A stretch of 64,000 nt of DNA from a virus: positions 56,728-120,727 of IMG/VR virus record IMGVR_UViG_3300044981_000387. One strand, 5' to 3'. Positions 8,320 to 8,677 of the stretch are shown here, one piece after another. The notes under the pieces were generated by a model, which was given only the letters and a program-made list of their open reading frames with translations, was not told the DNA's origin and searched no databases. How positions within the stretch are numbered: the stretch's first letter is position 1; every line of letters starts with the position of its first letter. The translations under genes were made by a program, and so were the position numbers.

Positions 8320-8677
8320 TGGTGGAGTCGTCGCGGCACTGCCCCGCGAGTCCGAAATACTTCTTCAATAAAACTCATTCACAGACCTAGCTAATGGACT
8401 TAGTCATCAGCACCAAAGTTAGATACTCGCTCTAACGGGTCATCTACTGTTATTTTCATTAGTGAGAATCGTAGCCCTTCTTACTAACTATCTTTAGTTG
8501 GGTTTGCGCTCTTTTGGTTACGAAAGATATCTACCATTAGAACGTGAAGTGCAATTAAGCGGCTTCAGCAAATACCATATCGTCGGCATCTAAACGTTAA
8601 TTGCTTTTAGAGGGGCAATCATCCTCTGTCTGTATCATTTAATCGATTCTTTATCCCGTCGAATCTAAGTCGACCCC
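8320..8677 (-). ncRNA. ssrA: tmRNA (transfer-messenger RNA)
   Basis: One-piece tmRNA of 358 nt. The 5' end GGGGTCG-ACTTAGATTCGACGGG carries the hallmark GATTCGACGGG; the 3' end CGACTCC-A-CCA pairs with GGGGTCG over seven positions. Before the tag lies a PK1-type pseudoknot (GAGG/CCTC, with ATTGC pairing to GCAAT). The tag frame is at 8587-8555: resume codon GCC, peptide ADDMVFAEAA, stop TAA. tmRNA with SmpB frees stalled ribosomes and marks the nascent chain for proteolysis. The tag ends in EAA rather than the usual LAA or VAA. No smpB is in the window. Transcribed after three tRNAs from the promoter at 8934. Confidence 0.92.

What the first reader, a model, noticed from the sequence alone, without database searches (positions are those of the whole stretch)
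8320..8677. Phage tmRNA with a tag ending EAA
Complete tmRNA with 5' hallmark, pseudoknot and acceptor. Tag is ADDMVFAEAA. Most tags end LAA or VAA, which ClpXP/ClpAP recognise; Glu at the third last position should weaken this. The phage could thereby release stalled ribosomes without sending the tagged protein to degradation.
Basis: partly seen in the sequence, partly recalled or inferred. Interest (0 to 1): 0.85.

Follow-up and report, generated by a model that had tools for sequence, protein, structure and literature searches.

The report
Jumbo-phage tmRNA with a rewired elbow
A large bacterial virus carries a complete ribosome-rescue RNA whose peptide tag ends in an unusual Glu-Ala-Ala and whose normally near-invariant tRNA-like elbow is replaced by a different, matched pair of loops.

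Summary
The tmRNA is real: window 8320-8677, minus strand, RF00023 at 89.3 bits, tag ADDMVFAEAA. It lies in a 120.7-kb fragment of a large-phage clade. Glu at -3 is not unique: of 24 related phage tmRNAs (21 different) 4 have E, 8 M, 3 Q, 9 L. A scan of bacterial and archaeal genomes gave no true AND...AEAA tag (3 matches, none real). 'Release without degradation' is not supported as stated: all 24 tags keep Ala-Ala at the end, published work calls the effect of the -3 residue modest, and 35 records of the clade, this one included, carry two adjacent ClpP genes (one with the catalytic triad, one with all three residues lost).

The elbow is not canonical: D-loop UAGAUUCGA instead of UGGAUUCGA, T-loop GGCAGUG instead of UUCRANY. 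Both changes occur together in 10 of 24 clade tmRNAs; neither occurs alone there. Scans for two mixed forms found no tmRNA. This fits A18·G55 replacing G18·Psi55 with G19-C56 kept. ARAGORN called 0 of 17 such tmRNAs, against 9 of 14 with a GG D-loop. Best reading: a working phage tmRNA of a new elbow variant whose tag is weakened but probably still degradable.

The parts
8320..8677 (-). tmRNA gene (ssrA-like), one piece, 358 nt
   Evidence: RF00023 89.3 bits, positions 1-374; full acceptor with G3-U70 and CCA
8671..8677 (-). acceptor stem 5' strand GGGGUCG
8658..8667 (-). D-loop UAGAUUCGAC with AG where GG (tRNA G18 G19) is the rule
   Evidence: 53 of 53 resolved bacterial controls (of 58 loci) have GG
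8598..8626 (-). pseudoknot 1 region (GAGG...CCUC and UGAUUGC...GCAAUUA)
   Evidence: alignment to RF00023; end coordinates counted by hand from the sequence printed
8555..8587 (-). tag reading frame GCC...UAA = ADDMVFAEAA*
8564..8566 (-). GAA codon for Glu at the third-last position of the tag
   Evidence: position derived
8545..8567 (-). helix H5 at the end of the tag (UGAAG...CUUCA); its 5' side holds the -3 codon
   Evidence: the five pairs are Watson-Crick in all 6 short-tag tmRNAs compared; 4 of 5 pairs change on both sides, all the variation coming from G010 and G425
8331..8349 (-). T arm UCGCG-GGGCAGUGC-CGCGA: T-loop GGCAGUG (closed by a sixth G-C pair) instead of UUCRANY
8320..8330 (-). 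acceptor 3' strand CGACUCC and ACCA
8692..8921 (-). three tRNA genes next to the tmRNA; the middle one is Thr(GGU) by ARAGORN, the outer two read as Thr(CGU) and Thr(UGU) by eye
   Evidence: tRNA-Thr clusters beside the tmRNA recur in relatives

Best explanation
This is a working phage tmRNA of a new structural variant. Shown by sequence: the RNA keeps the alanine acceptor, CCA, pseudoknot 1, frame-setting A, tag frame and helix H5. It has a coupled replacement of the D-loop/T-loop elbow: A18 with G55 in place of G18 with Psi55, G54/G58 in place of U54/A58, and G19-C56 and purine 57 kept. Inferred: the host AlaRS charges it, host SmpB and EF-Tu deliver it (no SmpB was found in the phage record), and it rescues ribosomes stalled on cleaved or truncated mRNAs during infection. 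It adds ADDMVFAEAA to the nascent chain. The EAA end probably lowers affinity for a ClpX of the E. coli type. The kept terminal Ala-Ala argues that tagged chains are still degraded, more slowly or with an adaptor, possibly by a Clp peptidase into which the phage's own catalytic and non-catalytic ClpP subunits assemble. The new elbow removes the U54 and U55 targets of TrmA and TruB.
For: RF00023 match. H5 Watson-Crick in 6 of 6 short-tag tmRNAs, with double-sided changes in G010 and G425. Elbow coupling: 10 of 24 clade tmRNAs have AG in the D-loop, and all 10 have a T-loop with G55-C56-R57; the 14 with GG keep a U55-C56 (13 of 14 resolved by the script, G444 read by eye; G455/G450 and G005 placed by eye, see the Against line). 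Scans of viral contigs: AG with the new T-loop gave 18 matches, 12 different, 17 of 18 over the RF00023 cut-off (6 known, 10, L376), the 18th (L370) at 43.4 bits. AG with the canonical T-loop gave 0. GGA D-loop with the new T-loop gave 13, none a tmRNA by Rfam. Bacterial controls: 53 of 53 resolved canonical. [quoted passage not shown] On the ClpP tree the elbow class changes at least 6 times, 5 forced by supported branches. ClpP pair in 35 records (28 different): Ser and His kept in 35 of 35 of the catalytic type, third residue D in 25 and E in 10; all three positions changed in 35 of 35 of the partner. No SmpB in 9 of 9 records searched, all possibly fragments.
Against: No expression, charging or tagging data. 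tmRNA genes seem to move between these phages: on the weakly resolved tmRNA-body tree only 2 elbow changes are forced by supported branches, so the coupling may rest on few independent events; on the ClpP tree the class is hardly more clustered than shuffled labels (72 of 500 shuffles as low). The 18 pattern matches were chosen for having both loops and are not an independent test of coupling. The mixed-form scan that found nothing had no positive control in viral contigs; the only check was a looser pattern in 31 bacterial genomes, 3 canonical tmRNAs found. G005 and G455/G450 have other odd T-loops; G455/G450 have an extra D-loop base that the script read as GA and I read as GG. The base numbering (18, 19, 54-58) is transferred from tRNA by position. 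An elbow this odd could also mean poor SmpB or AlaRS use: for a worm AlaRS, changing G18G19 to AA cut charging drastically (passage).
Confidence: 0.7

Rival explanations
1. One reading: the EAA tag escapes ClpXP, so the phage rescues ribosomes but spares the tagged proteins.
For: E/Q/K endings in phage tmRNAs and none of the AND...AEAA type found in the genome scan. The engineered DAS tag, with Asp at -3 and Ser at the end, is stable in E. coli without SspB (review passage). Phage growth that depends on tmRNA needs ribosome release, not proteolysis (PMC2481249 passage).
Against: Terminal Ala-Ala kept in 24 of 24 clade tags. The sister on the ClpP tree has MAA, and 9 of 24 have LAA. The effect of the -3 residue alone is described as modest. 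The phage carries ClpP genes.
Confidence: 0.2
2. The phage remodels the host Clp peptidase: the catalytic and non-catalytic ClpP form a mixed ring system, and the tag drifts because recognition is shared with, or moved to, another unfoldase or adaptor.
For: ClpP pair adjacent in 35 records; in the window's phage the non-catalytic partner aligns to solved ClpPs from residue 4, the catalytic one mostly from residue 24, so the canonical N-terminal segment is kept in the first only. 23 of these 35 records also have a tmRNA.
Against: ClpP does not choose substrates. No clear ClpX-like gene: AAA_2 matches in 5 of 8 records, two of them just over the cut-off (27.2 and 27.4 bits against 27), in AAA proteins of 373-385 aa; no ClpX-specific domain was searched for. 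tmRNA and the ClpP pair are 11 kb apart. ClpP-family matches are also found in 5 of 12 other viral records taken for their tmRNA tags, so co-occurrence is weak evidence.
Confidence: 0.3
3. The window tmRNA is a decaying gene: the odd elbow and the odd tag are random damage.
For: ARAGORN misses it; the elbow lacks near-universal bases.
Against: The same kind of elbow recurs in many other phages with intact acceptor, T stem and tag. Both loops change together. H5 is compensated in relatives.
Confidence: 0.06
4. The phage tmRNA acts mainly as a decoy that titrates host SmpB, as suggested in print for a TLD-only phage RNA.
For: Hudson et al. 2014 discuss the TLD-only RNA of phage DS6A in this way (passage).
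Against: Here the whole mRNA-like part is present and the tag frame is open in 24 of 24.
Confidence: 0.05

Closest known systems
Bacterial one-piece tmRNA (ssrA; Rfam RF00023)
   Same: CM match over cut-off, Ala acceptor G3-U70, CCA, pseudoknot 1, frame-setting A at -4, tag with stop in helix H5
   Different: Elbow D-loop AG and T-loop GGCAGUG instead of GG and UUCRANY; tag ends EAA
Phage tmRNAs already in print (mycobacteriophages Bxz1 and others, Bacillus phage G, huge phages, marine phage Melnitz)
   Same: tmRNA carried by a phage; reported for 402 of 18,146 phage genomes (PMC9004378, passage); also in PMC4131195 and PMC7162821 (passages)
   Different: In the passages I read none describes an altered elbow or an EAA tag; ARAGORN, named for tmRNA calling in PMC7162821, called 0 of the 17 alternative-elbow tmRNAs I gave it
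Engineered ssrA-DAS tag
   Same: acidic residue at -3, made to minimise ClpX binding (review passage)
   Different: DAS also changes the last residue to Ser and is used with SspB; the natural tag keeps Ala-Ala
Clp genes in jumbo phages (Agrobacterium phage Atu_ph07, Sinorhizobium phages AP-J-162 and Phosso, uncultured 634-636-kb phages)
   Same: ClpP and/or ClpX in very large phages; AP-J-162 (clpX) and LR756504.1 (three ClpP matches) also have a tmRNA in the same genome
   Different: here two adjacent ClpPs, one with the triad lost, in 35 related records

Membership tests
tmRNA (RF00023) | covariance-model score over Rfam's gathering score | tested here: met
   89.3 bits against 47
tmRNA (RF00023) | alanine acceptor: 7-bp stem with G3-U70, A73, CCA | tested here: met
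tmRNA (RF00023) | open tag frame after a frame-setting A at -4, stop codon inside helix H5 | tested here: met
tmRNA (RF00023) | alanylation, SmpB binding and tagging | not testable with these tools
   needs bench work
tmRNA with canonical elbow (sub-kind) | D-loop GG and T-loop UUCRA as in tRNA | tested here: not met
   AG and GGCAGUG; 53 of 53 resolved bacterial controls canonical
LAA/VAA-type ssrA degron | hydrophobic residue at -3 before Ala-Ala | tested here: not met
   Glu at -3
LAA/VAA-type ssrA degron | degradation by ClpXP | not testable with these tools
   no assay; host unknown
ClpP peptidase (PF00574), first phage gene | Ser-His-Asp triad | tested here: met
   Ser and His 35 of 35; third residue D in 25, E in 10 including the window's phage. 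Whether Glu serves is not tested.
ClpP peptidase (PF00574), second phage gene | Ser-His-Asp triad | tested here: not met
   35 of 35 pair members: Ser position D/N/F/Y/K, His position S/T/G/N, Asp position R/K/T/Q/L/I; at most a non-catalytic subunit. Three single-copy outgroup records keep Ser and His.

The most novel reading that the evidence does not exclude
Jumbo phages carry a separate class of tmRNA in which the near-universal G18·Psi55 / U54·A58 elbow has been swapped as a unit for A18·G55 / G54·G58. It does not need the host T-loop modification enzymes TrmA and TruB, and works with a phage-modified ClpP as the phage's own tag-and-degrade pathway, with a tag that host ClpXP handles poorly.
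Probability: 0.3. Interest if true: 0.8.

Novelty: new variant of a known kind. Interest (0 to 1): 0.62.

Why it matters
The G18·Psi55 and U54·A58 contacts of the elbow are among the most constant features of tRNA-like molecules. Here a natural, matched replacement turns up in many phage tmRNAs, giving a ready natural experiment on what the elbow must do for SmpB, AlaRS, EF-Tu and the ribosome. Counts of phage tmRNAs made with ARAGORN would miss this class. The -3 drift to E/Q/M, together with kept Ala-Ala and phage ClpP genes, makes the question of what phages want from trans-translation, release or degradation, directly testable.

Tried and rejected
Tried without result: BLASTN of the window tmRNA and of three other alternative-elbow tmRNAs against 50,697 phage records, no match; megablast of 13 kb of the window, no match. 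The host could not be named: tblastn of ligase and polymerase gave only distant phages, all under 60% identity. SmpB: none in 9 records. ClpX: AAA_2 matches in 5 of 8 records, two just over the cut-off, in proteins too short and too weak to call ClpX. Wider literature: searches.

Considered and rejected: another tag frame; gene decay (recurrent elbow, compensated H5); bacterial origin of the EAA end. A first idea that any polar or aromatic -3 residue is phage-only was wrong: a sample of 398 Pseudomonadota genomes gave 47 with NAN at -3. I read 30 of the 48 matches: 28 Tyr, 1 Lys, 1 with no in-frame tag; 18 were not read. So only the acidic/Gln ending looks phage-biased, and only for tags with the AND start and a UAA stop. 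The window's own tag starts ADD and would not match the AND-only pattern used for bacteria. The AG D-loops reported for L204 and L211 are taken as false (permuted tmRNA; L204, L211 by its identical tag). Two of the 19 resolved viral LAA rows look like spurious T arms; 61 of the 80 loci were not resolved. The 'independent pairs' output compared a trait with itself and is no test; I do not use it. Three of the 40 loci (L342-L344, the weakest) were left out. In one search only 14 of the 22 new loci were given to Rfam; 13 of those 14 are tmRNAs, so not every polar-tag contig was checked.

Full report
Observation. The window is bases 56,728-120,727 of a 120,727-base virus record. Rfam RF00023 matches window 8677-8320 (-) over its full length, 89.3 bits, cut-off 47. 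The tag frame opens at GCC (8587) and reads ADDMVFAEAA, stop UAA.

Relatives. The NAD-dependent ligase led to 12 loci in viral contigs up to 480 kb; 4 of those 12 records have a tmRNA over the cut-off. Tags: ANDNAFAMAA, ANDNAAPMALAA, ANDNAFAEAA, ANDNAFAPVAQAA. A Pfam search for Clp protease gave two adjacent copies in 5 of 9 records, the same 5 that carry a tmRNA; the other 4 are shorter contigs. In the window's phage the copies lie at record positions 52,438-53,031 and 53,034-53,621, about 11 kb from the tmRNA and outside the window. An alignment of the second copy (A1) found 40 loci. I compared 37 of them (L342-L344 left out) plus the window's phage: 38 records, 35 with both copies, 28 of these different. 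The first copy keeps Ser and His in 35 of 35, with Asp in 25 and Glu in 10. The second has lost all three triad residues in 35 of 35; the 3 single-copy records keep Ser and His. Of 31 records of this set not searched before, 16 have a tmRNA at E <= 1e-15. With seven others this makes 23 of 35; many of the other 12 are fragments, but one without a match is 394 kb long. A 24th tmRNA (G013) is on an 11-kb contig with the same gene surroundings (tRNA-Thr genes) but no ClpP in view. As a control, 5 of 12 viral records taken for other tmRNA tags also have a ClpP-family match.

Tag end. Among the 24 clade tmRNAs (21 different; three identical pairs) the third-last residue is L in 9, M in 8, E in 4 and Q in 3; all 24 end Ala-Ala (G455/G450 read by eye). 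On a ClpP tree this residue changes at least 9 times. The window's sister on that tree, G427, has ANDNGFAMAA; by tmRNA body the window is slightly nearer to G010 (80.9%) than to G427 (77.6%). A pattern scan for ...EAA tags in viral contigs gave 11 matches, of which 4 are tmRNAs by Rfam: ANDNAFAEAA, ANDFAFAEAA, ANDNAIAEAA and ANDNNVPMEVAEAA. The AND...AEAA pattern in genome contigs (84,980 species by the tool's description) gave 3 matches, none a true EAA tag: one is a betaproteobacterial tmRNA whose tag is ANDERFALAA, and in the two others Rfam finds no tmRNA. As a rough denominator, 174 of 398 Pseudomonadota genomes match the same template with any residue at -3. The pattern with NAN at -3 in viral contigs gave 26 matches, 25 with an in-frame tag: 19 QAA, 4 EAA, 1 KAA, 1 YAA; 13 of 14 of the new loci given to Rfam are tmRNAs. 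In the bacterial sample, 47 of 398 genomes match with NAN at -3; of 48 matches I read 30: 28 Tyr, 1 Lys, 1 without an in-frame tag. So acidic and Gln endings look phage-biased, but the test covers only the AND-type template.

Is the RNA under selection? The -3 codon lies in helix H5. In six short-tag tmRNAs (window, G009, G010, G013, G425 and G014, which has no ClpP match) the five pairs are Watson-Crick in every case, and four of five change on both sides: GAA pairs with UUC, AUG with CAU, CAA with UUG. All the variation comes from G010 and G425. These six were chosen because their tags are short; longer tags fold differently there.

The elbow. ARAGORN does not call the window tmRNA. Given 31 loci, it called 0 of 17 alternative-elbow tmRNAs and 9 of 14 with a GG D-loop; the five misses are G009 (canonical T-loop), G005, G425, G455 and G450. 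The D-loop here reads UAGAUUCGAC where UGGAUUCGAC or GGUUUCGAC is the rule, and the T-loop reads GGCAGUG (closed by an extra G-C) where UUCRANY is the rule. In the 24 clade tmRNAs, 10 have the AG D-loop, and all 10 have a T-loop with G-C-purine in the middle: GGCAGUG, GGCAGUA, GGCGGUA or UGCAAU. The 14 with GG keep U-C: 10 canonical UUCRANY loops (9 by the script, G444 by eye with one mismatch in the T stem), plus G005, G425, G455 and G450 with longer, slightly odd loops. Without regard to kinship, chance agreement of this kind is 1 in C(24,10), about 5e-7, but several sequences are near copies, so this overstates it. Bacterial controls: 53 of 53 resolved, of 58 loci, have GG with UUC; 28 of the 58 come from one group with LAYAA tags. 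Of 80 viral loci with LAA tags 19 were resolved: 17 canonical, 2 that look spurious.

Scans of viral contigs tested the mixed forms. AG with the new T-loop: 18 matches, 12 different. Six lie in records already known. Of the 12 others, 10 are over the RF00023 cut-off, L376 is over it with laxer filters (72.6 bits), and L370 is at 43.4 bits, E 4e-16. AG with the canonical T-loop: none. GGA D-loop with the new T-loop: 13 matches, none a tmRNA by Rfam. There are 15 different alternative-elbow sequences in hand.

What the coupling means. In tRNA, G18 pairs with Psi55, G19 with C56, and U54 with A58, with purine 57 between (PMC7912444, passages). Carrying the numbers over, the alternative class has A18 with G55, keeps G19-C56 and purine 57, and has G54/G58 (U54/A58 in the UGCAAU loops). 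That is what a replaced tertiary contact would look like. For tmRNA, loop-loop contact is reported to be needed for SmpB binding, and the T-loop carries m5U and Psi made by TrmA and probably TruB (PMC3968760, passages); the new loop has no U at 54 or 55 in the GGCRGUR forms. On the ClpP tree the elbow class needs at least 6 changes, 5 forced by supported branches, and is hardly more clustered than shuffled labels. On the tmRNA-body tree, which is weakly resolved, it needs 7 in all 31 rows and 4 within the clade, with only 2 forced. Near-identical tmRNA bodies in phages that are not sisters on the ClpP tree (G426, G428, G429, G446: 92-95% identity) suggest that tmRNA genes move between phages, so the number of independent switches is uncertain.

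Mechanism. A whole tmRNA without a phage SmpB (0 of 9 records) must use the host partner. Rescue of ribosomes on broken mRNAs is the likely service to the phage; in E. coli, phage growth that depends on tmRNA needs release only (PMC2481249, passage). Whether tagged chains are destroyed is open. For weakening: DAS-type tags are stable without SspB (PMC9382460, passage). Against full escape: the -3 effect is called modest (PMC7652416, passage), Ala-Ala is kept in all 24 clade tags, and the phage has its own Clp peptidase subunits. I rate slower or adaptor-dependent degradation above no degradation.

Known and new. Phage tmRNAs are known (PMC4131195, PMC7162821, PMC9004378; passages), and so are Clp genes in jumbo phages (PMC6102473, PMC11242549; passages). 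I found no description of an altered tmRNA elbow or of EAA phage tags in searches of an open-access library, from listings and the passages named above; subscription journals are mostly missing there, so this is not proof. The finding is a new variant of a known kind.

Noticed in passing
window 8692-8921 and L018, L019, L345-L347, L349-L352: Clusters of tRNA-Thr genes with different anticodons (UGU, GGU, AGU, CGU) sit beside the tmRNA in many phages of the clade.
   Followed up: partly
window 5095-5168; L055 5927-6002; L377 7893-7968: A tRNA with anticodon CUA (called tRNA-Pyl by ARAGORN) recurs, near a tRNA-Arg(CCU); only 3 of 40 window ORFs of 190 aa or more end in TAG. Possibly an amber suppressor.
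   Followed up: no
window 3363-3911, 9122-9910, 33442-34545, 23473-24678, 26648-27634, 28254-29189: Translation and RNA-repair genes: an initiation-factor-like protein, a tRNA-His guanylyltransferase, a nucleotidyltransferase, an RNA ligase and two polynucleotide kinase-like proteins.
   Followed up: no
window 5386-6351: Phage-borne quinolinate synthetase NadA (PF02445).
   Followed up: no
L370 1-486 and 9451-9814: A ROOL RNA and an alternative-elbow tmRNA (43.4 bits, just under the cut-off) in one 181-kb phage contig together with 21 tRNA genes by ARAGORN.
   Followed up: no
L365, L376, L380: Alternative-elbow tmRNAs with unusual tags as I read them by eye: GEYQYMAAA, QNDELKQAAA, AENTYLLAA.
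   Followed up: no
L284 (LR756504.1, 636-kb uncultured phage): tmRNA at 65.2 bits with a very long tag frame ending ...NDNVNSFEQSILNELFAPVEMAVAA and yet another odd elbow (UAGAUUGG D-loop), in a genome with three ClpP-family matches.
   Followed up: no
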